Source: a virus
Direction: 5' to 3' (one strand)
IMG/VR virus record: IMGVR_UViG_3300033148_004729
Location: 1-60,437 of that record
Length of the DNA: 60,437 bases
The notes under the pieces are model-generated. The model was not told the origin of the DNA, searched no databases, and worked only from the letters and a program-made list of their open reading frames with translations. The translations under genes were made by a program, and so were the position numbers. Shown here one piece after another: positions 1-54,799 of the stretch (position 1 is the stretch's first letter; every line of letters begins with the position of its first letter).

Positions 1-3000
1 TTCAGCACGAGGGCTGTAAGTGCCCCGGCCGGCGTGGCCCTTCGGAATCGCTTCGGCAAGGAGCCCGTCAAGTACGTTCCCCTGTCGCAGTTTTTCACTT
101 CCAGGCAGCGCAAGGACGGCGAGGACGATGATGCCATTTATGGCAGGCGTGCTCGACCACGTAAAAAGAAGAAGGGCGCCAAGGCGTCTGAGGGCCCCCA
201 GGGGCCCAAGCAGCCGGACACGGACGATGAGACCCGCAGGACGAAGAAGAGTCCCACAGAGGCCGTAGAGGCTCAGGATGGGGTATTCCTGACCGAGCCG
301 CTCGTTGAGGGGAAGATTTGCTGGATGAAGGGATGTTCCAGCCCGGCCACGAAGCAGATTGTGTGGGCTGATGGTCGCGCCATCTTTCCCGTCTGCGATG
401 CCTGCGTCGAGGCCGGCAAGAAGTACCTCAAGAAGAAGAACGGAAAGTGGGCCGAGATCGTTGCTGTCCAGTCCATCAAGGAGGCTGGAAGTGGGCAACC
501 TGTTGCCCACCTCGACGAGTCGGCGGCGCACGTCAAGTCCATCGCCTTGATGCGGTGGCTCTCCAGAGCGGCCAAGGAGCTTCGAGCCGACCAGCATATC
601 TACGTCGTCGGCGGTGCGGTCAGAAACTTCGTCATCGACAAGCCCATCAAGGACGTCGATGTGGTGCTCGACGCCGTGGCCCTCGGGCGCGGGCGCGACT
701 CGGCGTGGTTCGCCAAGCAGCTTCAGAAGCGCATCGGCGCCAGGTCGAAACTGGCAACCAACCAGTACGGGGTGGCCATCCTGACCGTCTCGGGCGACTG
801 GGAGGTCGATGGTCACAACCTCAAGGGCGAGGTCATCGAGATCGCCAACGCCAGGAGCGAGAGCTACGGCGGCGAGGTCGGCAAGGGGTACAAGCCCTCG
901 GACGTGCAGGTGGCGCCCATCGAGAAGGACGTCAAGCGGCGGGAGTTCACGTTCAACTGCATGGGCGGTGACACCCTCATCCCGACCGAGATGGGTATCC
1001 TCCGGATTGACAAGATCGCCGACCGGACCGATGGGGATCGACAATCCATCGAACTTCGGGTCGCCGGGCAGGACGGTCCGGCTGTTGCCGCCGGGTGGCA
1101 GTATAGTGGTCATACCGACACGCTTCGGGTCAAGACTGAGTGGGGGCACACATTCACCTGTACCTATCATCACCCGGTCTTGGTGCTGCGGGGTCACGAG
1201 CACGAATGGGTTCAGGCTGATCAACTCGAAGATAGTGACTTGCTCTGTGTCCCAGTGCGTCAGATGGTGCGCCAGGCCCCGTTGACACTTGACTTGTCCG
1301 ATCCGGTGCCGCCGAAACATGGTCGCCTCAAGGAGATCCGGAAGCCAGAGGTGATGACCCCGGAGCTTGCCTACGTCCTCGGATGTCTTGTGGCCGAAGG
1401 GTCCAACACGGCGAAGAGGGTGTCGTTCAGTAATTCGGACAACGCTTTCATCGCTCGCTACGCCGAGTGCTTTCAGGCTACGTTTGGGTTTGCGCCATCG
1501 CGAAATCAAGTGGTTGCAGAGGGCGACGTCCGGGTGCTGGATGGTGTCGAGTTTCGAGCGACTCGTGACGGGTTCGACATTTACGCGGACAGTCGGACCC
1601 TGGTGGGTTGGTTCGATGAGCTTGGGTTGTACTGTGGTGGCGCATGGGGCGGGAAGTCAGCCTCTCATCACAAGATAGTGCCGTGGTCGATTCTGGAGGC
1701 TGACGAGAAGAGTCAGGCTGCGTTCCTGGCCGCTTACCTGGAGGGTGACGGGTCGATCAGGCCGGACTCGGGGCGCATCACTTACTGTTCCGTTTCGCCG
1801 CATATCCGTCAGCAATTACAGGTACTCCTGGGTGCCCATGGGATACTGAGCAAGGTCAAGGGTCGATTCGTCTACGTCAATGCCGTGGATTCGGCGAAGC
1901 TGTGGTCGAAGATCGAAGCGTGGATGGTTACCAAGCGGTTCGACTACGACGGCGTGAGCTTCAAGTCGCGCAATCGTTACGGCGTCCAAAATGAGCATCT
2001 GGCGGGGTGGTTGAAGGGGCGGCGCGTCAGCGTGGGAAACAACACCGGGGCATCCATCTTTCGAACCGACGATGGTGACGAGGTGTCGCTGGCCGGGATG
2101 ACCGAAGCTCTTCGGCGTCCAAAGCGAATCCTTCACGATTCCGTGGCTCGTGGGGACTACGACACGTTCATGGTGGGGCTCAAGATGGTCAGCCCGACCG
2201 AGTACGCCAAAGTTCAACGGCTCCTTGATCTGGAATACCAGTATGTCGAGGTGGCCTCCGTGGAGAACGCAGGACAGCAGGACGTGTACGACTTGTCCAT
2301 GCACGAGGGAGTCGAGCCAGCTTTTGTAGCCAACGGGGTAATCGTCCACAATACGCTCATGTGGCGGCTGGCCGACCTGGCCAAGGGCCCCGACAAGGCC
2401 GAGATCATCGATCTGGCCGGCTGCGGCCTGAAAGACCTCAAGGCCAGGACCATGAGGTGTCCGTCGGACCCGGACAAGACCTTCTCGGACGACCCCACAA
2501 GGATGCTTCGGGCTATCAAGTTCATGAACAAGTACGGGTTCAAGATCAGCCCGGACACCGAGGCGTCCATCCGGCGCAACGCCAGCAAGCTTCGTAACGC
2601 CCCCTCGGCGGCCATCGCGAAGCTTCTCGTCGACGTCATCTTGAAGGAGCCGCGGACAGCGAAGAAGGCTCTCGGCGAGATGAAGCGGCTCGGGCTCCTC
2701 GACGTGGTGGCGCAGATGGCCCAGGACGACGCATCGTTTCGGGCGACCTTGAGCGGCTGGGCCAACGACCAGCGGGTGGCGCTCCTCTTCCACCTGCTCG
2801 ACCTGGGGCTCCCTCTCAAGACGAAGCTCGGGGCCTTCGAGCCAGCCGAGCAGAAGCGTATCCGGGTCGTGACGGCCACGATGCCGGATGCCGAGGCCTC
2901 AGAATACCTGGCTGCGCTCAAACAGCCTGGTCGGGCGTGGAAGGACAAGCTCTTCTTCGCGGCCATGGCGGCCGACTTGGGCGCAACGGGGAAGGGCATC

Positions 3001-3702
3001 GGTAAATTGGCGCAGCGCGTCAATGGCATTGCCAGGGACGCCATGCTGTCGGACCCCAAGCTCGTGGGCTCGCCAGAGAAGCTCAAGCGCATCATCCGGG
3101 ACGCCATCAAGGACTCGGGAGCCCGTTTTGAGGCCAAGACCCGCAAGTGCGAGTTCTGCCAGAGCCCGGCGACCCACGCCGTGCGAGCCCAGCCGACCGG
3201 CCTTGACGTGTGCGACGAGCACCTGAAGAGGGCTAAGGCACGACTTCGTAAGATGGGGTTCAGGGACTCGCGGATCTCGTCGCATAGGATGGCCACGGTC
3301 TACGGCGAGAGTCGCGAGAGGAGCAACTGCGACTTTGGCAGTAGCGCCTACTACGAATTCGTCAAGAAGAACCAATGCTTTAGGACCAGGGAGTTCGAGG
3401 AGTTCGTCACCGACCACAACAAGGCCGGTCGAGACAGCGGTGAGCTTCAGGACATCGCCATGCACGAGGTCGAACGCCTGGCGCGGGAGTTTGCGAAGAA
3501 GGTCGAGGGCATGACGACCACGGCGAACATCGCCACAACGCCGGTTCCGGTCGGCGCCGGGGATGGCCGCAAGTTCCTCGACTTCGGTCCTGGTCATCCA
3601 TTCCATGGGCGCGATTTCGGTGAGCCGAAGAAGAAGCGGAAGCGGAAGAAGAAGCGCCAGGGCTTGTCGCAACGGCTCTCTTACCTGCTTACCATCCCGT
3701 AG
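1..3702 (+). CDS. tRNA nucleotidyltransferase / poly(A) polymerase-like protein with intein (5' partial)
   Basis: Adds nucleotides to RNA 3' ends by family inference (CCA-adding enzyme / bacterial poly(A) polymerase); after protein splicing it would act on host or phage RNA. Numbering from the GTG at 34, the head domain shows GGAVRN at about 193-198 and the metal-binding DVDVV at 207-211, then RREFTFN, which is interrupted by an intein and resumes with TLMWRLADLA, DDPTRMLRAIKFMNKYGF (neck). Two small Cys clusters share a C-x(2-4)-C-x-SPAT pattern: one near 96-140 before the head domain, one near 1040-1080 (CEFCQSPAT then VCDEH). The C-terminus is very basic (PKKKRKRKKKR). The frame is open to base 1 and no Shine-Dalgarno (SD) precedes the GTG at 34, so the true start is probably upstream of the window. 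Stop is TAG at 3700-3702. Enzyme class is confident; CCA versus poly(A) activity cannot be told. Confidence 0.85.
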   Translation, partial: FSTRAVSAPAGVALRNRFGKEPVKYVPLSQFFTSRQRKDGEDDDAIYGRRARPRKKKKGAKASEGPQGPKQPDTDDETRRTKKSPTEAVEAQDGVFLTEPLVEGKICWMKGCSSPATKQIVWADGRAIFPVCDACVEAGKKYLKKKNGKWAEIVAVQSIKEAGSGQPVAHLDESAAHVKSIALMRWLSRAAKELRADQHIYVVGGAVRNFVIDKPIKDVDVVLDAVALGRGRDSAWFAKQLQKRIGARSKLATNQYGVAILTVSGDWEVDGHNLKGEVIEIANARSESYGGEVGKGYKPSDVQVAPIEKDVKRREFTFNCMGGDTLIPTEMGILRIDKIADRTDGDRQSIELRVAGQDGPAVAAGWQYSGHTDTLRVKTEWGHTFTCTYHHPVLVLRGHEHEWVQADQLEDSDLLCVPVRQMVRQAPLTLDLSDPVPPKHGRLKEIRKPEVMTPELAYVLGCLVAEGSNTAKRVSFSNSDNAFIARYAECFQATFGFAPSRNQVVAEGDVRVLDGVEFRATRDGFDIYADSRTLVGWFDELGLYCGGAWGGKSASHHKIVPWSILEADEKSQAAFLAAYLEGDGSIRPDSGRITYCSVSPHIRQQLQVLLGAHGILSKVKGRFVYVNAVDSAKLWSKIEAWMVTKRFDYDGVSFKSRNRYGVQNEHLAGWLKGRRVSVGNNTGASIFRTDDGDEVSLAGMTEALRRPKRILHDSVARGDYDTFMVGLKMVSPTEYAKVQRLLDLEYQYVEVASVENAGQQDVYDLSMHEGVEPAFVANGVIVHNTLMWRLADLAKGPDKAEIIDLAGCGLKDLKARTMRCPSDPDKTFSDDPTRMLRAIKFMNKYGFKISPDTEASIRRNASKLRNAPSAAIAKLLVDVILKEPRTAKKALGEMKRLGLLDVVAQMAQDDASFRATLSGWANDQRVALLFHLLDLGLPLKTKLGAFEPAEQKRIRVVTATMPDAEASEYLAALKQPGRAWKDKLFFAAMAADLGATGKGIGKLAQRVNGIARDAMLSDPKLVGSPEKLKRIIRDAIKDSGARFEAKTRKCEFCQSPATHAVRAQPTGLDVCDEHLKRAKARLRKMGFRDSRISSHRMATVYGESRERSNCDFGSSAYYEFVKKNQCFRTREFEEFVTDHNKAGRDSGELQDIAMHEVERLAREFAKKVEGMTTTANIATTPVPVGAGDGRKFLDFGPGHPFHGRDFGEPKKKRKRKKKRQGLSQRLSYLLTIP
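491..510. repeat. palindrome copy 1
   Basis: GTGGGCAAC-CT-GTTGCCCAC, 9-bp arms, inside the nucleotidyltransferase gene (encodes QPVAH). Confidence 0.85.
958..2352 (+). mobile_element. LAGLIDADG intein inside the nucleotidyltransferase
   Basis: In-frame 465-residue insertion. It begins with Cys (CMGGDTLIP, block A), has a block B pattern TCTYHHPVLVL, two dodecapeptide LAGLIDADG motifs (YVLGCLVAEG near host residue 447 and AAYLEGDGSI near 567), and ends with FVANGVIVHN (blocks F/G, penultimate His and terminal Asn) followed by Thr as the +1 extein nucleophile. Removing it restores RREFTFN-TLMWRLADL, which matches the conserved RRDFTxNAL motif of class II nucleotidyltransferases. All splicing residues are present, so it is predicted active for splicing; both acidic endonuclease residues are also present. 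Base composition is visibly less GC-rich than the flanking extein, consistent with recent acquisition. Confidence 0.93.
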
Positions 3703-3803
3703 CAACTGCCAGATGTGAGTGGTAGTATTGCCTCCAACCTCGTGGTGAGGAGTGGTGCTCTTGTATTGTCAGGGGCATCGTAGAAGGAGGAGGAGAAGGA
3801 GAG

Positions 3804-4795
3804 ATGGACCAAATTACCCCTGAAGCTACCACCAGCACGGATGCTCCCACGCAAGCCCTTGGAACGTCGACGACAAGGCCAGGTCGTCACAGCAAGGCGG
3901 AATCCTCGATACGTCGGATGAGAGCTACAAGCCGGTCACCGAGGCTTCACCAGAGCGTGGAATCTATGGAATTGTTGGCGGGTACGTCGACGACAACGGC
4001 GTTCTGCACAACGAGGTCGAGCTTGAGGCCATGGGTGGTGACGAGGAAGACCTCCTCGGCAACGAGTCTGTTCCGTTCATGAAGCGGATGGATTCAATCA
4101 TGGCCTCCTGCACGAAGAGGATTGGCACCATCACGGACGCGGCCGGGATCCACCGGGCCATCCGGGAGATGCCATCGGGTTCGAAGACTCATCTCTTCAT
4201 ATGTCTGCGGATCACTTCTCATCACAAGACTCAGAAGGACGTGTACGAGATGGAAGTCCGCTGCCCGGACAAGATCCAGTGCGGCAAGATCGGGTACTAC
4301 AAGGTCAGCCTGCTCGACCTCGACCTCTTTCAGCCTGAGGATCCGACGGAGTTGGTCCACGAAATCGAGCTTCCGTACGCCGAGTGCAAGGCGAAGTGGA
4401 AGACGCTCACGGGCAAGGAGGACCACATCCTCACGCTCCTGACAGAAGCGAGCCAGCCCGAGCAGTTGAGTTTCGCCATCCTTGTGCGTCTGGTTGAGCT
4501 TGATGGTGAGCACGTCGAGCTTGCGATGACTGAATGCCTGTCCGGCGACGGCAAAAAGGTGAAGCTCAACAAAAAAGCCACCAACTTGCTGAGGAAGGTC
4601 AAGGCAATGAAGGCCGGAGACCGCGACTTGTTCCGTGGCGACTTCATGGACAAAGAGGCTGGAATCGAGACGGATATTGACGTGACGTGCTCCCATTGCA
4701 ACATGGACTTCATGGCACGGCTCAACGTGGCTCAGGAGGCGTTCTTTTTCCCTCAGGTAACCTCGCGGCGCTCGAAGAGGAGACGCTCTACTTGA
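3804..4795 (+). CDS. tail assembly chaperone / baseplate hub chaperone-like protein, first part (frame-disrupted)
   Basis: The ATG at 3804 follows a very strong SD (GAAGGAGGAGGAGAAGGAG). The reading frame starting there (MDQITPEATTSTDAPTQ) is lost after about 20 codons. Convincing coding sequence (GGILDTSDESYKPVT, GIYGIVGGYVDDNGVL) then continues one frame back and runs without any ATG/GTG/TTG before the ATG at 4031. The simplest repair is one extra C near 3857. The C-terminal part has CSHCNMDF followed by FFFP, the zinc-knuckle-like end seen in phage tail chaperones and T4 gp26-type proteins. Position just ahead of the tape measure gene supports a tail-assembly role. Without the frame repair the product would start at 4031 (254 residues). 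It is followed by a -1 frame extension (next entry). Confidence 0.7.
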
Positions 4796-4917
4796 TGGAT
4801 CGTCTTCACCTTGGCTATCGGGACGTCATGGAGATGCCCATCGGTCGGCGAAAGAGGTTCTGCGAGGAAATCGAGCACATAGATCGCGTGAGGTCGAAGA
4901 AGAAGCCTAAGAAGTAG
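4744..4917 (+). CDS. tail assembly chaperone -1 frame extension
   Basis: This segment has no start of its own. It is read by a -1 shift from the preceding frame at the sequence TTC TTT TTC CCT (4742-4753), giving FPSGNLAALEEETLYLMDR and then LHLGYRDVMEMPIGRRKRF. The motif with LGYRDVMEMPxxxR resembles the gpT-like second half of tail chaperones (aromatic, then LPxxxR). In many phages a chaperone G protein and a minority G-T fusion are made by exactly this kind of slip upstream of the tape measure gene. The alternative is a missing T in the T5 run. The first-frame product instead ends in a short basic tail at 4795. A GTG at 4687 could in principle start this frame but its first 20 codons do not look like protein. 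Confidence 0.6.
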   Translation, partial: LFPSGNLAALEEETLYLMDRLHLGYRDVMEMPIGRRKRFCEEIEHIDRVRSKKKPKK

Positions 4918-4954
4918 GTACGGCGGCATAGTGGGTGGCGGGGAGGTCGGGTAG

Positions 4955-5809
4955 ATGCCTGGCGGCGGGATGGGAAGGATGGGGGAGGTCGAGACGGGGG
5001 CCACGTTCGGGTCGTGGACCGTCCTTGACGTTTCCGGCGTCCAGCGCCGTGAAGCCTATTACGACTGCCGGTGCTCCTGCGGGACCGAAAAGCCTGTCGC
5101 TAAGTCGTCTCTCCTAAGTGGTGCGAGCACTCGATGCCGGCAGTGCTCCAACGCCAGCAACCAGAAGGCCACGGAAGCTCGTCGGCGGTCCATCAATCCG
5201 GGTGCGACCATCGGCTTGTGGACGGTCCTCGAAGAGGCCGAGGCACGGAGCGGCAACCTCTACATGCGGTGCCGGTGTGAGTGCGGGGCCGAGCACGAGG
5301 TGATGGCCTCGACACTGCGACGCGGAAAGTCGAAGAGTTGCGCGGCCTGCTCTCGGAAGATGAGCCGGAAGAAGAATCGCGAGATGACCTCGAAGCACGG
5401 CGGGGTCCAGGCTGAGTACCGAGCTTGGAGCCGAATGCGAGAGCGGTGCAGGAATCCCAACGAGAGGAGCTTCGAGCGGTACGGTGGCCGGGGCATCAAG
5501 GTCTGTGAGGAGTGGCAGGGCGAGGGTGGCTTCGAGCGGTTCATGGAACACATCGGACCTCGGCCGTCGGTCAAACACTCCCTGGAGCGCATCGACAACG
5601 ATGGCAACTACGAGTCCGGCAATGTGAAGTGGGCGACGAAGAAGGAGCAGCAGAGGAACACGAGACGAAATAGGCAGGTGACCATAGACGGGGTGACGAA
5701 GTGCGTGGCTGAATGGGCTGGAGAGTCCCAGGTTCCAGCCTCCATCATCTACAAAAGGTTGTATCGAGGATGGCCTCCTGAGAGGGCCGTATTCGAAGGG
5801 AGGATGTAG
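4955..5809 (+). CDS. HNH-type homing endonuclease with two zinc-ribbon DNA-binding repeats
   Basis: 284 residues. Residues about 20-70 and 80-130 are two copies of a zinc-ribbon module (each starts G-x-x-x-G-x-W-x-V-L, then C-x-C-x-C-G, then C-x-x-C). The rest is the phage HNH family signature: EYRAWSRMRERCRNP, YGGRGIKVCEEW, then SLERIDNDGNYESGNVKWAT. The gene sits between the tail chaperone and the tape measure gene, where it has no structural role, so it is read as an intergenic mobile endonuclease. Its first nine residues (MPGGGMGRM) are identical to those of the downstream tape measure protein but use different synonymous codons. Its last codons (GGG AGG ATG TAG) supply the SD of the tape measure gene. 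Start chosen at ATG 4955 behind GGGGAGG. Confidence 0.85.
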   Translation: MPGGGMGRMGEVETGATFGSWTVLDVSGVQRREAYYDCRCSCGTEKPVAKSSLLSGASTRCRQCSNASNQKATEARRRSINPGATIGLWTVLEEAEARSGNLYMRCRCECGAEHEVMASTLRRGKSKSCAACSRKMSRKKNREMTSKHGGVQAEYRAWSRMRERCRNPNERSFERYGGRGIKVCEEWQGEGGFERFMEHIGPRPSVKHSLERIDNDGNYESGNVKWATKKEQQRNTRRNRQVTIDGVTKCVAEWAGESQVPASIIYKRLYRGWPPERAVFEGRM

Positions 5810-8800
5810 ATGCCAGGGGGAGGAATGGGGCGCATGATGGGCTTTGGCTTCCTCTTTGGAGCCAAAGACGATGGTGCGGTCCGTATGACCGAGGACATCT
5901 CGGGCGGCATGGGTCGCATGGTCGATGCCACTGAGCGTGTTGGTCGTGAGTCTGCTGGCATTGGTCGTCTCGGCAACTTCATCAACGCCCTCAACCTTCG
6001 GCAGTTGTCTCGTGTTGGCGATGCCATGGAGAACCTCGCCAGCAGGGCTGGAGCCTTGGCAGGCGAGGTTTCTTCGACCTCGATGGAGTCCTTTGGGGCT
6101 GAGTACGCACAAACCTTCAGGGCGGCTACTGCGGGCATGGGTGAGTACGGGGCCGAGGTCGAGTCTGTCAGGGGTGAGATCGGGAGCCTCGCGTTCAACC
6201 TCGGCATCGGAGCCGACGAGATGTTGAGCTACGCCACCACGGTGGCGCGGAGCGGCATGAGCCTCGACGACTTCGGCATTGACATGAGGTCGGTCGCCGG
6301 TTCCATCCAGGCCAACATTCTCTCCGGCGAGCAGCTTGCCGGAGTCCTGACAGGTCTTGCGCGCGGGTATGATCTCGGGGCTGAAGGGGCTACGAGGATT
6401 CTCGACACCATCACGGCAGTCGGTGAGCAATTCGGTGTTGGGGCAGACGCGGCCAGGGCCCTTCCAGAGGTCATGCAGGCCGTTGACGCTGCTGCGGCAC
6501 GCTTCCCGTCCATCGGCGAGAATGTCGATGTTGCCGTTGAGTCCATCACACGACTCGGAATCGCCCAGCAGCGACGCCTTGGGGGCACCTTCCAGGAAGG
6601 CATTTCGTCGGCCATCAACGTCTTCAACGAGCTTGCCGGTACGCGGCGGGAGATGGAGGGCCTGTTCACGGGCTTGAATGATCAGTTCCCGGAGCTTGCT
6701 TCCGAGATTGCGAGGGCCACCGGCAACGTCAGCTTGAGTTTTGACGCCATCATGCAGGACCCGGCCAGGTTCGCTGGGACCATCGCCAGCATGTTCCGGA
6801 GCATGGACCAGGGGAGTCCGGCGGCGTCCAGGCTTCGGGCCGTCCTCGAACAGATGGGGCCTGAGTTCATGTTCCTCGTGCAGGGTGGCGAGGAGTCGGC
6901 TCAAGCTCTCGAAGCTGCCATGGGTTCTGTTGAGGGGGTCGAGGGGGCTTTCAACAGTATGAGTCGGTCTGCGGGTGGGGCGACTCGTACCTTCGCCGAG
7001 TCCATGGAGCTTGTTGAGGAGAGCTTCCGACACCGGCTCGACCGGATGGCGAGGCGCCACTACCCAAACTTCGAGCGTGACGTCCTTCAGCGACAACGGC
7101 GTGCCTACCAGATGATCGGCGATACCATCGCCAGCGTGGCCGGCAGGAGCGGTCCGGTAGGGATGCTCACGAGGTCGATGATTGCATTCCGCCGCGGTGG
7201 TTTCACCGGTCTCGTCGAGGGGTTGTCCAGGGAGACCCGTGGGATGGGGCGGCGATTCGTCGAGGCCGCTGGTGAGGCGAGTCCTGCTCTCGGGGCTATT
7301 GCTCAGGGGTTTGTCGGGCTTGGGGAGAGGGCTCGGGACGCCATGCCGTTCTTGGACGGCGCGGGTGAGATGATCTTTGACATGGCCGGGCAGGCGCTTC
7401 CGACTGCAACTGCGATGGGTGCCCTTGGCCTAAATTTCGAGACCGTTGGACGGGGAGCCCGTGGCGCCGCAAGTGGTATCGGCAGGGTTGTGATGGCCCT
7501 TGGTCCGCTTGCCATCGTTGTCGCTATCGCGGCAGGTGTCTACTTGCTGGTCAGGAATTTTGACCGGGTTCGGGCGTCGCTGTTGAGCGCCGGTGAGAGC
7601 ATCAGGGACTTCGGTGCCAACTTCCTCGATTGGGCAACCAACATTGACTGGGCGACCCTCGGTCAGCGCATTGTTGCTGGTATCGTGTCGATCTTCACGG
7701 GTGCTGGGTCGAGGCTCACAGGGATGGCCGAGGATGCCACCGGGGCCGTCTTGGACCCCGTGTGGGTGCAGATGGGCAGGAACATCCGAGACGGCATCAG
7801 AGACGTCTTCCTTGGCATCATGCACGCCGTTCCAGGGTTGGCCAGAGGCATCTGGACTGGCATCCAAAATCTGTTCTCGGACCCCGAGGCGTTGCGCCAG
7901 GCCATCACGGACAACATCGCATCCATAGGCGAGTTCCTCGGGCCGGCGTTTGAGAGTGCTTTCAGCACACTCGGTGACATCGGTGGGAGGATCTGGGGGT
8001 TCCTCTTCGAGAGGTTCAACATCGGGCCCATCACTGAGGCCATCCAGCAGGGAGACTGGGGTCGAGCCATCTTCGAAGGCATCATCGGCGCGACCGGCGC
8101 TGGTTTTGTCAGGCGGATCTGGGCGCATCTCTTCGGCGAGGAGGCTGTCTCCGAGGGTCTCAGCGGCATTGCAGGGGTCTTCGGCGAGATAGGCACTGGC
8201 ATCTGGGACTCCATGACGACTTGGGTGGAGCTTGCGAGGCCCATCTGGAACGAGTTCATGGGTGCCTTCAGCGAAATCCAAGGTGTCTTCGAGGAGTTGT
8301 GGAGAGACACCATTCAACCGTTGTTTGGCGAGATTTACAACGAGATCGTGCCGTTCATCGAGGAGCTTTTCGGTATTCAGATTGCCGTTGGTGGCGTTGG
8401 TGAAGGGTTCGAGGGTGTACAGGGTGCGGTGAGGGGCTTCTTCGAGAACGTCCAGCGAGGGTGGCGGGTCATGCAGCCCTTCATTATGGAGTTCGTCCGG
8501 AGGATGTTGCCGCGAATCGTTGAAGGTGTAAGGAACTGGGCACGAGGTGTCAGGGTCGTCATCGGGGTGATGCGGAGGGTCTGGCGTGTGGTGGGACCTG
8601 TTTTGCTCAACATCGTGCGCGGGTTCCGCGTGATGATTGAAACTGCTTGGGAGTTTTGGCAGGAGACCTTGAGGCCTGTCCTTCAGCGTATTTTCCGTAC
8701 ATTCCGGCGTGTCTTTGTGCGGTATATTCTTCCGACGGTTCGTCGGGTGTTTACGACTCTCGGTAGAGTCATCAGAGTGTGGTGGCGCCGTCGGGTGAGG

Positions 8801-9784
8801 CCGATCCTTAGTGCGTTGTGGGATCGGTTCAGCAGGACGTTCAGTTTTATCGTTCGGACAGGCCGGACTGTCTTCAACTACCTCCAGCGGCACATCACCA
8901 ACCGCATTCGTCAGGCGGCGATGGTCTTCCAGGTGCTCGGGGAGAGGTGGAGGGCCACGAAGGAAGTGCTCAGGGCTGGGTTCCGTGTCATTGCTGCTGA
9001 GGTCAACAGGTGGCTGGTCGTGCCGTTTTTGCGGCTTCAGGGCACCTTGGTTGGCATGGCCGACATCATCAGGCTTGCTTTCCTGAGGGTCAAGATGGGC
9101 GTCATGGATATGATGCTCAGTATCGTACAGGGCTTTCAGACGTTTTTGCGGAACATCACTGGAGTCGGACCGACCTTGGCCAGAGCCTTGGACCCTGCTG
9201 TGACGGCGATTCAACAGCGCATCACGACAATCGGAGGCGCGACCGGAGAAGGCGGCGAGATTGGCCAATTCATGGCCAGGACTGAACGAGAAAGATTGTC
9301 GCGTCAGGGTCAAATTGACGAGGCCAACACGAGGGCTGACAGCGCCAGGGAGGCGGCGGCGGCGGCCGAGGTCACGAGGCAACAGGTCGAGCGAGAGGCT
9401 CGTGTCAGGATGGCTCACGCGGAGCGTATGGCAAGCGCAGCCCCGGAGCCACCGACGAGAGCCACGGGTGCGCCCACGCGCGCAAGAGGGGTTGCGGCAC
9501 CTGCTGCTGTGGCTGCTGCTGGCGTTCCAGAGGTCATGGCAGGCCCAAGGAGGGGGGAGGAGTCGGAGCCCGGAGTGGCAACTTCTAGGCGCAGAGAGGC
9601 CGAGGAGGAGCGAAGGACGAGGGAAACAGAGGATCTTGCTGATGCCATTGCCATCAGTGAGTTCGGCAGCCAGGCCATCGGGCAGATGCGGGATGCGGTG
9701 CAGGAGGCTATTCAGAGGTCCAGGCGAACGACGCCACCACCTCGACGGCGAGGCGGGGAAAGGGTCCTGACGACAGACCCGTAG
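5810..9784 (+). CDS. tail tape measure protein
   Basis: 1324 residues, by far the longest tail gene, directly after the chaperone locus and before baseplate genes. The sequence is rich in Gly/Ala/Met helices. A hydrophobic stretch near residues 562-582 (GPLAIVVAIAAGVYLLV) is typical of tape measure proteins, which span the tail tube lumen and help DNA entry. A strongly basic amphipathic section with regularly spaced Trp/Arg follows near 900-1060 (many RVxxVxRxxW turns), and the C-terminus is a charged Ala/Arg/Glu-rich coil. The start at ATG 5810 follows GGGAGGATGTAG, an SD located inside the last codons of the upstream homing endonuclease. Two in-frame ATGs follow within ten codons. Confidence 0.93.
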   Translation: MPGGGMGRMMGFGFLFGAKDDGAVRMTEDISGGMGRMVDATERVGRESAGIGRLGNFINALNLRQLSRVGDAMENLASRAGALAGEVSSTSMESFGAEYAQTFRAATAGMGEYGAEVESVRGEIGSLAFNLGIGADEMLSYATTVARSGMSLDDFGIDMRSVAGSIQANILSGEQLAGVLTGLARGYDLGAEGATRILDTITAVGEQFGVGADAARALPEVMQAVDAAAARFPSIGENVDVAVESITRLGIAQQRRLGGTFQEGISSAINVFNELAGTRREMEGLFTGLNDQFPELASEIARATGNVSLSFDAIMQDPARFAGTIASMFRSMDQGSPAASRLRAVLEQMGPEFMFLVQGGEESAQALEAAMGSVEGVEGAFNSMSRSAGGATRTFAESMELVEESFRHRLDRMARRHYPNFERDVLQRQRRAYQMIGDTIASVAGRSGPVGMLTRSMIAFRRGGFTGLVEGLSRETRGMGRRFVEAAGEASPALGAIAQGFVGLGERARDAMPFLDGAGEMIFDMAGQALPTATAMGALGLNFETVGRGARGAASGIGRVVMALGPLAIVVAIAAGVYLLVRNFDRVRASLLSAGESIRDFGANFLDWATNIDWATLGQRIVAGIVSIFTGAGSRLTGMAEDATGAVLDPVWVQMGRNIRDGIRDVFLGIMHAVPGLARGIWTGIQNLFSDPEALRQAITDNIASIGEFLGPAFESAFSTLGDIGGRIWGFLFERFNIGPITEAIQQGDWGRAIFEGIIGATGAGFVRRIWAHLFGEEAVSEGLSGIAGVFGEIGTGIWDSMTTWVELARPIWNEFMGAFSEIQGVFEELWRDTIQPLFGEIYNEIVPFIEELFGIQIAVGGVGEGFEGVQGAVRGFFENVQRGWRVMQPFIMEFVRRMLPRIVEGVRNWARGVRVVIGVMRRVWRVVGPVLLNIVRGFRVMIETAWEFWQETLRPVLQRIFRTFRRVFVRYILPTVRRVFTTLGRVIRVWWRRRVRPILSALWDRFSRTFSFIVRTGRTVFNYLQRHITNRIRQAAMVFQVLGERWRATKEVLRAGFRVIAAEVNRWLVVPFLRLQGTLVGMADIIRLAFLRVKMGVMDMMLSIVQGFQTFLRNITGVGPTLARALDPAVTAIQQRITTIGGATGEGGEIGQFMARTERERLSRQGQIDEANTRADSAREAAAAAEVTRQQVEREARVRMAHAERMASAAPEPPTRATGAPTRARGVAAPAAVAAAGVPEVMAGPRRGEESEPGVATSRRREAEEERRTRETEDLADAIAISEFGSQAIGQMRDAVQEAIQRSRRTTPPPRRRGGERVLTTDP

Positions 9785-12830: not shown

Positions 12831-13220
12831 ATGGGTATTATCGGCATCAGCTTCCCCTTCCAGAAAGGGGTGACATCGTTCCCGAGGTCGTCGACCGATA
12901 ACGATGTCATTGCCGAGAACATTCAGCATATTCTCACGACTCGGAGGGGCGAGCGCGTCATGCGGCCTGATGCTGGGAGTGGTGTTTGGGAGTTTGTCTT
13001 CGAGAACACCGGGGCAGTCCTGAATGCCCGTATAGACAACGACGTTCGACAGGCTCTTGCTGAAGGGGAGCCCAGGGTTGATGTCATACAGGTGAATGTC
13101 ACCGAGGAGAAACGGACGGACGGCGACAAGGATGTTGTCGTTGAGGTGGTCTACTCGGTCAACCTCGACGTCCAGCAGACGACCGTGACACTCGCTGTGC
13201 CGTCGAGCATCGGAGGCTGA
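12831..13220 (+). CDS. baseplate wedge protein, gpW/gp25 family
   Basis: 129 residues. MGIIGISFPFQKG, then DVIAENIQHILTTRRGERVM, then FENTGAVLNARIDNDVRQAL match the gp25/gpW lysozyme-like-fold family, whose hallmark is the I-x-x-I-L-x-T-x-x-G-E-R motif with Arg/Pro following. It connects the baseplate wedge to the sheath in contractile tails. Start ATG 12831. The stop is followed one base later by the GTG of the gpJ-like gene, so the two are translationally linked. Confidence 0.9.
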   Translation: MGIIGISFPFQKGVTSFPRSSTDNDVIAENIQHILTTRRGERVMRPDAGSGVWEFVFENTGAVLNARIDNDVRQALAEGEPRVDVIQVNVTEEKRTDGDKDVVVEVVYSVNLDVQQTTVTLAVPSSIGG

Positions 13221-13221
13221 A

Positions 13222-15351
13222 GTGACGGAGCCGCTACAGACAGAATCACCTCAGGCCAGCATCAATAGGGCGAGGTTCGCAAGTAAAGATTTTTTCACGT
13301 TCGTCGACGACCTCATCAGCCGCATCCAGCTTCTTTTCGTCACGGAGTTCAACGACTTCGTGTCCAGCGGCACCGGGCAGATGCTCATCGACATCGTGTC
13401 ATGGGCTTGCGAGACGCTTTCTTTCTACATCGACCGGCAGGCTTCGGAGAGCTACCTGGCCACGGCGCGGCTCAGGCGCTCTGTCAACCGTCTTGTCCGC
13501 CAGGTCGGCTACAAGATGGCCCCTGCGACGGCGGCGTCCGTGGACCTCGAAATCACGCTCACACAGGTTCGTGCTTTCGACGTGCCCATCAACATTGGCT
13601 TTCAGTGTAAGGGGCCGAATAATCTCATTTTCGAGGCCACCGAGACGATCACCTTCCCGGCTGGCGAGGGACCCCTGAGCACTCCGAGGATGTTGAGTGT
13701 TCGTGAGGGGACTACGAAGATCGAGCGATTTACGTCGGATGGAACCAAGAATCAGGCCTTCCGGCTTCAGCCAGGAACCAACCGCTACGTGGCTGAAGGA
13801 ACCGTGTCTGTCAAGGTGGATGGCGCTCCGTGGACCGAGAGCGAGTTCATCACCTTCGACGAGACCGACCAGTACGAGATCGACTACAACATGGTGCCAC
13901 CGTTGGTTCGGTTCGGTGACGTCCTGGCTGGCAACGTCCCGGCCAATACGGCCGACATTGAGGTTACTTACGTGACCACCGGCGGCAAGGAAGGGCTTGT
14001 CCTCGCCGATACCATCGACGACGTGGTGACTCCCCTCGTGGTAGCCTTCACGGACATTGGACTCAACATCACGAACCCAGACCCGACGAGTGGTGGTGCG
14101 CCCCCCGAGACATTGGAGTCGGCCAAGGCCAATGCGCCACTGTGGTTTGCAGCTCGCAATGTTGCAGTTGTCCAGGCCGACTACGTGTCCTTGTCGGAGA
14201 ACTATACGGACCCCACGGCTGGGTCGGTGGCGGTAGCTCAGGCCTTTGTCGCGCTCGGGGCGAGCGACGACCTCACTTTGCAGAGGCTCCTCGACAACAT
14301 CAGGTCCATCACCGCTCCTCTGACGACGACCATCAACGGTTACGTCGCACAGGCCGAGTCGGACCTGTTGGACCTGTCCGATGAGCGAGACAGTGCTGAG
14401 GTCGCGAACGGCACGGTGGCCACCAAGCTCGTTGGCATCGCTTCCGACTCTGCTTCGGCGCGGTCCTCGGTGCAGAGCGTCAAGGGTGATGCCGTTCAGC
14501 TACAGGCTCAGGTTTCGGCTGGCCAGGCGTTTGTGTCGGCGCTGCCGACGAATGCACCGAGCCAATTGACCATTGCTGACCGGGATACCATCAATGGCTA
14601 CTTCACGACCATTGGGTCCGAGGGGAGCAGCATCAGCGGGGATGCCGACTCTGCCGAGGGGGATCTCGATGACCTCGACGACAAGGTAGACGACGCTCAG
14701 ACGGCCCAGGCTCAGGTGGCCTCGGACCTGACGGCGATGACGCCGCTCATTACGAGCATCCAGGCCCAGCTCGACAACATCGAGGCGGGCATGACCACGA
14801 GTTTCGAGACCTCCATCGAGACGGAGCTTCAGGCCATCTACGACCATGTGGATGCGTTCCTCGCGTACGACTGCAAGAGCAACCTCGTGCAGGTGCCCAT
14901 CTTGACCACGGACGTCGATGGTTTCTTCCAGTCCCCATCGACGGCCTTGATGCGGTCGCTGGAGAACTACCTGAGAGCCCGTAATGAGGTCACGCAGGTA
15001 GTCGAGGTAGTCGATGGTGGGGCGTGGCTCGTCGAGGCCATCATCACTGGGACTCTTGGAATTACTGAGGGGTATGTTCAGGCCACGGTGCTCTCGAACG
15101 TGGCCAAGGCGCTCGACGACCTTCTCCGGGAGCGACGTTTTGGTGACAGTCTTCGGCTCTCGGACCTCTACACGTCCATTCAGCCGGATCCGTTGACCGG
15201 GGTGGGTGGTGTCGACGGCGTGGAGTACGCGGTCTTCGCGATTACAGGGCCAACGGCATTCTTGAATATCAATGGAAATCTAGTGATAACGGAAAAGTAC
15301 GTCATCTCCAAGGGGAGCGTGACGCTGACGGCAGAGACGGCCATCGACTGA
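13222..15351 (+). CDS. baseplate wedge protein, gpJ/gp6-like, with inserted coiled coil
   Basis: 709 residues, start GTG 13222. The N-terminus (FVDDLISRIQLLF, LIDIVSWACETLSFYIDRQ, ARLRRSVNRLVRQVGYKM) is the helical start of gp6/gpJ wedge proteins, followed by beta-rich sections with P-x-x-x-F-x-x-x-G type turns. Residues about 365-545 are a long Ser/Asp/Ala-rich, mostly helical insertion (DLDDLDDKVDDAQTAQAQ) that looks like a coiled coil not present in short family members. The C-terminal wedge domain resumes at KSNLVQVPILTTDVDGFF and ends with a beta strand. In T4, gp6 dimers form the baseplate ring. Confidence 0.87.
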   Translation: MTEPLQTESPQASINRARFASKDFFTFVDDLISRIQLLFVTEFNDFVSSGTGQMLIDIVSWACETLSFYIDRQASESYLATARLRRSVNRLVRQVGYKMAPATAASVDLEITLTQVRAFDVPINIGFQCKGPNNLIFEATETITFPAGEGPLSTPRMLSVREGTTKIERFTSDGTKNQAFRLQPGTNRYVAEGTVSVKVDGAPWTESEFITFDETDQYEIDYNMVPPLVRFGDVLAGNVPANTADIEVTYVTTGGKEGLVLADTIDDVVTPLVVAFTDIGLNITNPDPTSGGAPPETLESAKANAPLWFAARNVAVVQADYVSLSENYTDPTAGSVAVAQAFVALGASDDLTLQRLLDNIRSITAPLTTTINGYVAQAESDLLDLSDERDSAEVANGTVATKLVGIASDSASARSSVQSVKGDAVQLQAQVSAGQAFVSALPTNAPSQLTIADRDTINGYFTTIGSEGSSISGDADSAEGDLDDLDDKVDDAQTAQAQVASDLTAMTPLITSIQAQLDNIEAGMTTSFETSIETELQAIYDHVDAFLAYDCKSNLVQVPILTTDVDGFFQSPSTALMRSLENYLRARNEVTQVVEVVDGGAWLVEAIITGTLGITEGYVQATVLSNVAKALDDLLRERRFGDSLRLSDLYTSIQPDPLTGVGGVDGVEYAVFAITGPTAFLNINGNLVITEKYVISKGSVTLTAETAID

Positions 15352-53386: not shown

Positions 53387-53548
53387 GGCTTGCTCTGGTC
53401 AATCCGGTGCTTATGTTGAAGGTAATGGAGGTCGAGGATGCCTCCCTCAGCATCTACAAACTCGGTGAGGGTTGAGGAGGTGCTTGGGGGCTGAGAGAGC
53501 CGTGTGATAGATTCATATTTCGTAGGCGGCTCAAGATGGGAGCATGGG

Positions 53549-54799
53549 ATGAGTCTATCCAGTCAGCTTGATGATGCCCTTGCCGAATGGGCAATGGCGA
53601 AGCCCGGAGAGAAGCGTGAGCGTAAGGACGGGTACATCTGGCAGAAGCAGCGAAGCGGAGCGTGGAAGCGCCTCCACAAAGCCGCTGGCCGCAAAGCTGG
53701 GGCCGAGGAGGGTGCCGCCGTCGAGGCTGCCAGCAAGGCCATGAACGCCAAGGACGCGCCGGTGCCGAAGGGGCGCATCTGGATTGACCATGTTCCGGGG
53801 CTTCCGAACGACACCCAGAAGGCTCACATCGACACGGAGACCGGCGACTACAAGCCGGAGCGCAAGGCTCTCCACAGGAAGATCATCGAGGGCTTCCTGG
53901 CTGGGAATATGGTCAAGGGGGAGTTCGTTCCTGCTCAGGTTGTACCTGAAGGTCATCAGCCTGAGACACTGTTCATGATGGGCACTACGGCTTCGGGTAA
54001 GAGCAGCGCACGCAGAGAGGTCGATCCGGACCCGTTCAAGAAGTTCGGTGTTGTCGAGGTCGATCCGGATGCCATCAAAGCGATGCTTCCGGAGTACCAA
54101 AAGTCGATTTCCATGTCGGCTCGGGACGCTGCGAAGATCACTCATGAGGAGTCCTCTGACATCGCCGATCAGATCCGGAAGCTCGCCCTGGAGCAGAACA
54201 AGAACATCCTCGTTGACGGGACCGGCAAGACACTCGATACGGTCGAGAAGAAGATCAAAGAGGCGAAGGCCCGAGGTCATCACATTTCTGCGCTTATGCC
54301 GCACGTCCCGCTGGATCAGTGCAAGGAACGGGCGGACGACCGTGCTGAGAAGAAGGGGCGGTACGTGCCTCACTTCGTCATCGAAAAGTGCGCCGAGAAG
54401 GTGGGCAAGAACTTCATGGCGCTGAAGGACACGTTCGACACCTTCACTCTGTTCGACAACAGGACATTGGAAGGTGGCAAGAGGAAGCCACCAACACCAA
54501 TCATGAAGAAGCCGCCGGAGCCGCCGAAAGTCATTGATTCGGACTACTTCAAGCTGTTCTTGAGGGAGTCTGGCATCACGATGGAGTGGATCCGGTCCAA
54601 GGGGAATCTGATGACCGAACAAGATCAAGAGAAGATGGACTCACGAGAAGGTCCACCGCCGAAGAAGAAGCGCGCCGTCGACCCGGAAGCGTACGATGCG
54701 TGGTTCATCAATACCATCGAGGCCGAGAATGCGGCCAACGACGCGGAGCCCGCGGACTACAAGGTCGGCGAAGGTGTCGAGGAAGTCCTCGGTGACTAG
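53549..54799 (+). CDS. zeta-toxin-like P-loop kinase/ATPase
   Basis: 416 residues from ATG 53549 with GGGAG; a GTG at 53504 would add 15 residues. The N-terminus is basic with an RKDGYIWQKQRSGAWKRL motif. The P-loop GTTASGKSS is near 144-152, followed by VVEVDPDAIKAMLPEYQ, then NILVDGTGKTLDTV and RADDRAEKKGRYVPHFVI, as in zeta-toxin/PezT-like kinases that act on small molecules or proteins. The C-terminus is acidic. Located beside the ArdC-like gene, so part of an interference/counter-defence block by inference. Confidence 0.8.
   Translation: MSLSSQLDDALAEWAMAKPGEKRERKDGYIWQKQRSGAWKRLHKAAGRKAGAEEGAAVEAASKAMNAKDAPVPKGRIWIDHVPGLPNDTQKAHIDTETGDYKPERKALHRKIIEGFLAGNMVKGEFVPAQVVPEGHQPETLFMMGTTASGKSSARREVDPDPFKKFGVVEVDPDAIKAMLPEYQKSISMSARDAAKITHEESSDIADQIRKLALEQNKNILVDGTGKTLDTVEKKIKEAKARGHHISALMPHVPLDQCKERADDRAEKKGRYVPHFVIEKCAEKVGKNFMALKDTFDTFTLFDNRTLEGGKRKPPTPIMKKPPEPPKVIDSDYFKLFLRESGITMEWIRSKGNLMTEQDQEKMDSREGPPPKKKRAVDPEAYDAWFINTIEAENAANDAEPADYKVGEGVEEVLGD

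What the first reader, a model, noticed from the sequence alone, without database searches (positions are those of the whole stretch)
958..2352. Intein in the core motif of a phage nucleotidyltransferase
Seen: Cys1, block B, two LAGLIDADG motifs, C-terminal HN and +1 Thr; excision restores RREFTFN-TLMW. Known: inteins favour conserved active-site motifs. Inference: nucleotidyltransferases of this class are not hosts I recall for inteins, so this may be a new insertion point.
Basis: partly seen in the sequence, partly recalled or inferred. Interest (0 to 1): 0.72.

Follow-up and report, generated by a model that had tools for sequence, protein, structure and literature searches.

The report
Intein inside a phage tRNA nucleotidyltransferase
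A phage gene for a CCA-adding-type enzyme carries a self-splicing, self-spreading protein insert exactly inside its active-site motif; related phages carry or lack it in a patchwork that shows it jumps between them, and unrelated inserts have hit the same spot in another branch of the enzyme family.

Summary
Window 958-2352 (+) encodes a 465-aa class-1-type intein: Cys1, TxxH block B, two LAGLIDADG motifs, C-terminal His-Asn, +1 Thr. It lies inside motif B (RREFTFN|TLMW) of a class II nucleotidyltransferase (PF01743) in a myophage structural gene module. Twenty-two distinct relatives have an uninterrupted motif. Six distinct intein alleles (eight contigs) occupy exactly the same position. The inteins form one clade (100/100), but their hosts are scattered among empty alleles (AU test against one host clade p = 4e-40). 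L002 and L035 inteins are 93% identical while their host flanks are only about 60% identical. Both points indicate homing. dN/dS is about 0.06-0.15. A junction-pattern scan found a second, dissimilar intein lineage (320-323 aa, +1 Cys/Ser) at the same position in CCA-enzyme-like proteins of two other phages, so the site is a recurrent target. That Cys1 pattern had no match in 84,980 bacterial and archaeal genomes, and I found no published report. The mycobacteriophage 'nucleotidyltransferase' intein lies in a different family (RlaP, PF10127). Splicing and DNA cleavage are inferred, not shown. Verdict: a new insertion site for a known kind of element.

The parts
1..957 (+). N-extein: N-terminal part of the nucleotidyltransferase protein (5' end cut by the window edge), with a CxxxC...CxxC zinc-finger-like stretch and the PF01743 head domain
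652..660 (+). D-V-D of motif A (catalytic carboxylates GGAVRN...KDVD) in the nucleotidyltransferase
   Evidence: sequence; D43 and D45 invariant in the 15-row alignment
937..957 (+). first half of motif B, RREFTFN, directly before the intein
958..2352 (+). intein with LAGLIDADG homing endonuclease, 465 aa
958..975 (+). splicing block A, CMGGDT, with catalytic Cys1
1162..1173 (+). splicing block B TxxH (T69, H72)
1366..1401 (+). first LAGLIDADG motif LAYVLGCLVAEG (acidic E147)
1723..1752 (+). second LAGLIDADG motif FLAAYLEGDG (acidic D264)
2245..2352 (+). splicing blocks F and G (VEVASVENAGQQDVYDLS...FVANGVIVHN), ending His464-Asn465
2353..2355 (+). +1 Thr of the C-extein (nucleophile for trans-esterification)
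   Evidence: Thr, Ser or Cys in empty relatives
2353..3699 (+). C-extein: second half of motif B (TLMW), motif D, weak PolyA_pol_RNAbd match, C-terminal zinc-finger-like stretch; stop at 3700-3702
2488..2523 (+). motif D-like DDPTRMLRAIKF (cf. EDPxRxLRA of CCA enzymes)

Best explanation
Nt 958-2352 is a mobile class-1-type intein with a LAGLIDADG homing endonuclease, inserted between Asn and Thr of motif B (RREFTFN|TLMW) of a phage class II nucleotidyltransferase. After translation it most likely cuts itself out: Cys1 attacks the N-extein bond, the chain moves to +1 Thr, Asn465 cyclises, and the exteins are joined, restoring the active-site motif. Its endonuclease most likely cuts the empty motif-B DNA of related phages in mixed infections, and repair copies the intein in. 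Shown by sequence: anatomy, precise empty and occupied alleles, horizontal spread, purifying selection, same-site hits by a second intein lineage. Inferred: that splicing and cleavage occur, and that the spliced enzyme is active.
For: Family models and all splicing and endonuclease residues present. Foldseek of the intein model finds TliVMA intein 3e-14, PI-PfuI, PI-SceI and I-DmoI; its LAGLIDADG core is the part predicted with useful confidence. 22 distinct empty and 6 distinct occupied alleles share one exact junction. Nearest empty relatives: L004 for the window (about 80% protein identity, 99/99) and L018 for L040 (100/100). Host tree: intein-bearing rows scattered, 6 changes, one-clade AU p 4e-40. 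Intein tree: the six motif-B inteins are one clade 100/100. L002/L035: intein 92.6% aa and 89% DNA identity against about 60% aa for the host flanks. dN/dS 0.06-0.15 for the intein and no higher for its endonuclease part. GC3 0.70 in the intein against 0.82 and 0.85 in the exteins. Host fold: an empty relative at pLDDT 90 matches CCA-adding enzymes, E about 1e-13.
Against: dN/dS from saturated synonymous sites is rough. The AlphaFold model of the splicing part is poor (pLDDT mostly under 50; whole model 56), so the fold match rests mainly on the endonuclease core. The first LAGLIDADG motif ends in Glu rather than Asp, which is also known from active enzymes (own knowledge). No homing-site cleavage data.
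Confidence: 0.95

Rival explanations
1. An intein that has decayed: it sits there but no longer splices or no longer homes, so the enzyme is dead or split.
For: Splicing was not tested. In two contigs (L036 = L037, identical) the N-extein has a +1 frame break about 50 nt upstream of the intein, so at least one allele may sit in a broken gene. L057 keeps only the first ten intein residues joined to host sequence 22 residues downstream.
Against: In the window every splicing and endonuclease residue is intact, the frame is open on both sides, and the alleles evolve under purifying selection.
Confidence: 0.04
2. The 465 residues are an ordinary domain of this nucleotidyltransferase family, not an intein.
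For: None found.
Against: 22 distinct relatives lack it at the exact point, and the PF01743 and solved CCA-enzyme sequences run straight through the junction.
Confidence: 0.005
3. The intein serves the phage as a post-translational switch: splicing is timed so that the nucleotidyltransferase becomes active only under certain conditions, for instance inside the infected cell.
For: It interrupts a catalytic motif, so the precursor should be inactive; the gene lies in the structural module beside the tape measure protein, so the product could be carried in the virion; conditional splicing is published for mycobacterial DnaB inteins (PMC6195587, abstract).
Against: Most close relatives live without it, and the patchy, horizontally spread pattern is what a selfish element gives without any host function.
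Confidence: 0.07
4. The two intein lineages at motif B share one old motif-B intein ancestor rather than having arrived independently.
For: Same insertion point, both with Cys1 and LAGLIDADG_3.
Against: No BLASTP similarity between the window's intein and the L053/L054 inteins (best E 0.28 and 1.4). Closest isolate-phage relatives differ: terminase inteins for the window type, ribonucleotide reductase inteins for the L053/L054 type. Other viral relatives of the window type sit in portal proteins, terminases and a helicase-like protein.
Confidence: 0.08

Closest known systems
Class 1 inteins with LAGLIDADG homing endonuclease (e.g. TliVMA PDB 7qsu, PI-PfuI, PI-SceI; splicing ends like Mxe GyrA)
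   Same: Cys1, blocks A, B, F, G, HN + Thr, two LAGLIDADG motifs, in-frame insertion in a conserved motif, patchy distribution
   Different: Host protein and insertion point: motif B of a PF01743 nucleotidyltransferase
Phage terminase/portal inteins (Xanthomonas phage PhiXhv-16 TerL; portal inteins in IMG/VR contigs L066, L097, L100, L104)
   Same: Closest relatives in sequence: 33-44% pairwise identity with the window intein; same overall layout of about 430-490 aa
   Different: Inserted in portal or terminase proteins; the six motif-B inteins are a separate 100/100 clade
Mycobacteriophage cluster C1 'nucleotidyltransferase' inteins (ET08 gp3, Cali gp3; PMC3029335, PMC5050341)
   Same: Intein in a phage protein called nucleotidyltransferase, near a conserved motif
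   Different: Host is RlaP (PF10127, 5e-50), a different family; site KHGWD|TKTGYHALRL; a different intein
Class II CCA-adding enzyme / poly(A) polymerase (T. maritima 3h37, Planococcus 6ibp, B. stearothermophilus 1miv)
   Same: Fold, DxD motif A, motif B RRxFTxN, motif D-like DDPxR, RNA-binding part; profile match 6e-23
   Different: Phage protein with zinc-finger-like ends; in relatives fused to 2H phosphoesterase, type IB topoisomerase and acetyltransferase domains; substrate unknown

Membership tests
Class 1 intein | In-frame insert with no stop, absent at a precise point from homologues | tested here: met
Class 1 intein | Cys/Ser at position 1 and block A | tested here: met
   CMGGDT, C1 invariant in 7 inteins
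Class 1 intein | Block B TxxH | tested here: met
   T69 and H72 invariant
Class 1 intein | C-terminal His-Asn and +1 Cys/Ser/Thr | tested here: met
   H464, N465, +1 Thr
Class 1 intein | Family model over its curated cut-off | tested here: met
   PF14890 55.7 bits against 35.8; TIGR01445 27.1 against 24.5; TIGR01443 C-terminal model below its cut-off, 10.7 against 15.6
Class 1 intein | Protein splicing occurs | not testable with these tools
   needs expression
LAGLIDADG homing endonuclease | Two LAGLIDADG motifs with acidic residues | tested here: met
   LVAEG (E147) and LEGDG (D264), PF14528 7e-12
LAGLIDADG homing endonuclease | Spread independent of the host gene | tested here: met
   tree conflict and 93% against about 60% identity
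LAGLIDADG homing endonuclease | Cuts the empty site | not testable with these tools
   needs cleavage assay
Class II nucleotidyltransferase (CCA/PAP, PF01743) | Head domain with DxD, RRxFTxN and a motif D-like DDPxR | tested here: met
   PF01743 44.1 bits against cut-off 23; invariant columns; PDB profile match 6e-23; fold match 3e-13
Class II nucleotidyltransferase (CCA/PAP, PF01743) | Adds CCA or A to RNA | not testable with these tools
   needs enzyme assay
RlaP nucleotidyltransferase (host of ET08 gp3 intein) | PF10127 match | tested here: not met
   no PF10127 match in the window protein at E up to 1; ET08 gp3 matches it at 5e-50
Second motif-B intein lineage (L053/L054) | Sequence similarity to the window intein | tested here: not met
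   BLASTP best E 0.28 and 1.4

The most novel reading that the evidence does not exclude
Motif B of CCA-type nucleotidyltransferases is a convergent intein homing site in phages, and in the window's phage family the intein also works as a switch that keeps a structural-module (possibly virion-borne) nucleotidyltransferase inactive until it splices.
Probability: 0.07. Interest if true: 0.7.

Novelty: new member of a known kind. Interest (0 to 1): 0.45.

Why it matters
It adds a class of host protein, CCA-adding-type nucleotidyltransferases, and a precise site, motif B, to the list of places where inteins settle. It gives a natural set of 22 empty and 6 filled alleles with discordant trees in which phage-to-phage homing can be tested directly. 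The second lineage at the same residue pair supports the general rule that inteins hit active-site motifs that cannot be lost or changed. In practice, annotation pipelines that meet these 1,000-2,800-aa fusion proteins will misread the insert unless the intein is recognised.

Tried and rejected
Same intein as mycobacteriophage 'nucleotidyltransferase' inteins: rejected, different family. Ordinary domain of the family: rejected by empty alleles. Cellular occurrence: pattern scan of 84,980 genomes for RR[DE]FTxN|Cxxx[DE]T gave none; an intein-profile scan gave only two 25%-identical inteins, in Acidimicrobiia assemblies, in a protein that reads to me like a ribonucleotide reductase (family not scanned). 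Neither scan sees Ser1 or class 3 inteins or very divergent motifs. Isolate phages: of the 60 of 91 records listed, those annotated are terminases, helicases, DNA polymerases, RecA and the like, none a nucleotidyltransferase. Pattern hits L048, L050, L051 were chance matches; L046 and L047 are empty alleles with a natural +1 Cys. AlphaFold of the intein was weak in the splicing part, so no argument rests on it. L082 looked like another insertion but is an ordinary expansion elsewhere. A plasmid search with a portal-intein endonuclease stretch returned mainly RecA/Hint-domain genes and led nowhere.

Full report
Observation. The ORF at 1..3702 (+) is open at the left edge and reads 1233 aa without a stop. 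Its middle, nt 958-2352, is a 465-residue insert that begins CMGGDTLIPT and ends FVANGVIVHN, followed by Thr; excision joins RREFTFN to TLMW. Pfam finds Intein_splicing over residues 15-465 of the insert (6e-15) and LAGLIDADG_3 (7e-12), with PolyA_pol before it. NCBIfam finds the intein N-terminal region over its cut-off, and its CCA-enzyme and PcnB models resume just behind the insert. The nearest solved sequences are Mxe GyrA intein and VMA inteins.

Host protein. With the insert removed, the head-domain motifs are those of class II nucleotidyltransferases: GGAVRN...KDVD (motif A), RREFTFN-TLMW (motif B), DDPTRMLRA (motif D-like). In a 15-row alignment of empty relatives the two Asp of motif A and R138, R139, F141, T142, N144, T145 and W148 of the junction region are invariant. 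A profile of these relatives matches the T. maritima CCA-adding enzyme (6e-23), with RRDFTINAM aligned to the junction. An AlphaFold model of the empty relative L004 (pLDDT 90) matches CCA-adding enzymes at 3e-13. The insertion falls between Asn and Thr at the start of the strand after the motif-B loop. From general knowledge of these enzymes, motif B helps to bind the incoming nucleotide, so the precursor should be inactive. Whether the enzyme adds CCA, A or something else is unknown.

Surroundings. The window is a 60-kb IMG/VR virus fragment. Downstream genes match tape measure protein (5810-9784) and baseplate wedge proteins (12831-15351), so the gene lies in a myophage structural module. 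In the relative L014 the order is a terminase-like ORF, a portal-like ORF, a 2H-phosphoesterase-like ORF, then the nucleotidyltransferase (my reading of the translations). In L002 the nucleotidyltransferase is the first part of a 2,808-aa stop-to-stop frame that also has 2H phosphoesterase, type IB topoisomerase and acetyltransferase domains. The module position suggests, but does not show, a virion-associated enzyme.

Empty and occupied alleles. Scans of IMG/VR with the spliced protein, the intein, and a junction pattern gave 22 distinct empty alleles and six distinct occupied ones in eight contigs: the window; L002 = L003; L035; L036 = L037; L040; L065. All occupied alleles have the identical boundary FN|C...HN|T. 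+1 in empty alleles is nearly always Thr, once Ser (L030) and once Cys (L046). The nearest empty relatives are L004 for the window (99/99) and L018 for L040 (100/100).

Mobility. The host tree of 27 rows scatters the six occupied alleles; the label needs six changes, and forcing them into one clade costs 204 log-likelihood units (AU p 4e-40). The intein tree puts the same six in one clade (100/100) apart from portal, terminase and helicase-like inteins, and inside it joins L002 with L035 (100/96), which are apart in the host tree. Their inteins are 92.6% identical in protein and 89% in DNA, while the host flanks are 58-61% identical in protein. This is the mark of horizontal homing. dN/dS is 0.06-0.15 over the intein and 0.05-0.12 in the endonuclease part; most synonymous distances are near saturation, so only the direction (strong purifying selection) is firm. 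GC3 is lower in the intein than in its exteins (0.70 against 0.82 and 0.85).

A second lineage at the same site. The pattern RR[DE]FT.NC also hit two CCA-enzyme-like genes, in a 479-kb and a 178-kb contig (L053/L072, L054/L073). Both match PF01743. Their inserts are 320 and 323 aa, 52% identical to each other, and without BLASTP similarity to the window's intein. They carry LAGLIDADG_3 and a sub-threshold Intein_splicing match, +1 Cys and +1 Ser, and their nearest isolate relatives are ribonucleotide reductase inteins, whereas the window's are terminase inteins. Empty relatives of this enzyme run RRDFT[IM]N[AS]. So motif B has most likely been hit at least twice.

How it works. Best supported: self-splicing restores the enzyme, and the endonuclease cuts empty motif-B alleles of co-infecting phages, so the intein spreads. 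Shown: anatomy, exact junctions, horizontal spread, selection. Inferred: splicing, cutting, and enzyme activity after splicing. A regulatory role is possible but not needed.

Known or new. Inteins near active-site motifs of phage proteins are well known (PMC5050341). The published 'nucleotidyltransferase' intein of cluster C1 mycobacteriophages (PMC3029335) lies in RlaP, PF10127, at KHGWD|T, not in this family. Full-text searches joining intein with tRNA nucleotidyltransferase, CCA-adding enzyme or polynucleotide adenylyltransferase found no report of an intein in such an enzyme. Only open-licence papers are held, and InBase could not be searched, so novelty of the site is likely, not proven. 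The element itself is an ordinary class-1-type LAGLIDADG intein.

Side observations of note are listed separately, above all a portal protein (L097) with two dissimilar inteins lying back to back without a single extein residue between them.

Noticed in passing
L097:2995-5763 (IMGVR_UViG_3300005935_000023), portal-like protein ORF L097:514-6621: Three inteins in one portal-like protein; the second (2995-4386) and third (4387-5763) are directly adjacent with no extein residue between (..VVHN|CQIGES..), only 41% identical to each other, so the second must use Cys1 of the third as its +1 residue or wait until the third has left. Extein would rejoin as TYN|TMEIALSV. Related portals are empty there (L117-L121: SYN|SMEVALSV, SFN|TLEAALSS). 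A text search for tandem/adjacent/back-to-back/twin/nested inteins returned one paper, on neighbouring inteins. Assembly could not be checked against reads.
   Followed up: partly
L066:4001 onward (= L099), portal-like protein: Two inteins only four extein residues apart (FL|C...HN|SGDA|C...SN|TYNN).
   Followed up: partly
L053 (G001:C1:162698-164041) and L054 (G002:C1:85140-86660): Dissimilar 320/323-aa inteins at the same motif-B position in CCA-enzyme-like proteins, +1 Cys and +1 Ser, C-terminus TSN instead of HN.
   Followed up: yes
L057 (reverse complement, from 6865): Only the first ten intein residues (CMAGDTLIPT) are present, fused in frame to host sequence 22 residues past the junction (..|GCGMRDLQ): an intein loss by deletion that took part of motif B with it, or an assembly chimera of filled and empty alleles.
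   Followed up: partly
L036/L037 about 3500-3590: Frame break in the N-extein about 50 nt before the intein, identical in two contigs from different metagenomes; the host enzyme may be broken there while the intein frame stays open.
   Followed up: partly
L002:7545-15968, L035:1509-9947, L013, L024: Very long stop-to-stop frames (1,700-2,800 aa). In L002, nucleotidyltransferase, 2H phosphoesterase, eukaryote-type topoisomerase IB and acetyltransferase domains share one frame; L014 carries similar parts as separate ORFs next to portal-like and terminase-like ORFs. A possible multi-enzyme polyprotein.
   Followed up: partly
window 308-410 and 3148-3240: The nucleotidyltransferase protein has a similar zinc-finger-like stretch near each end (CWMKGCSSPATKQI...CDAC and CEFCQSPATHAV...CDEH).
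   Followed up: no
window 53504-54799: ORF with a PHROG match to polynucleotide kinase (4.5e-9) and a stronger one to a minor head protein family (5.2e-12).
   Followed up: no
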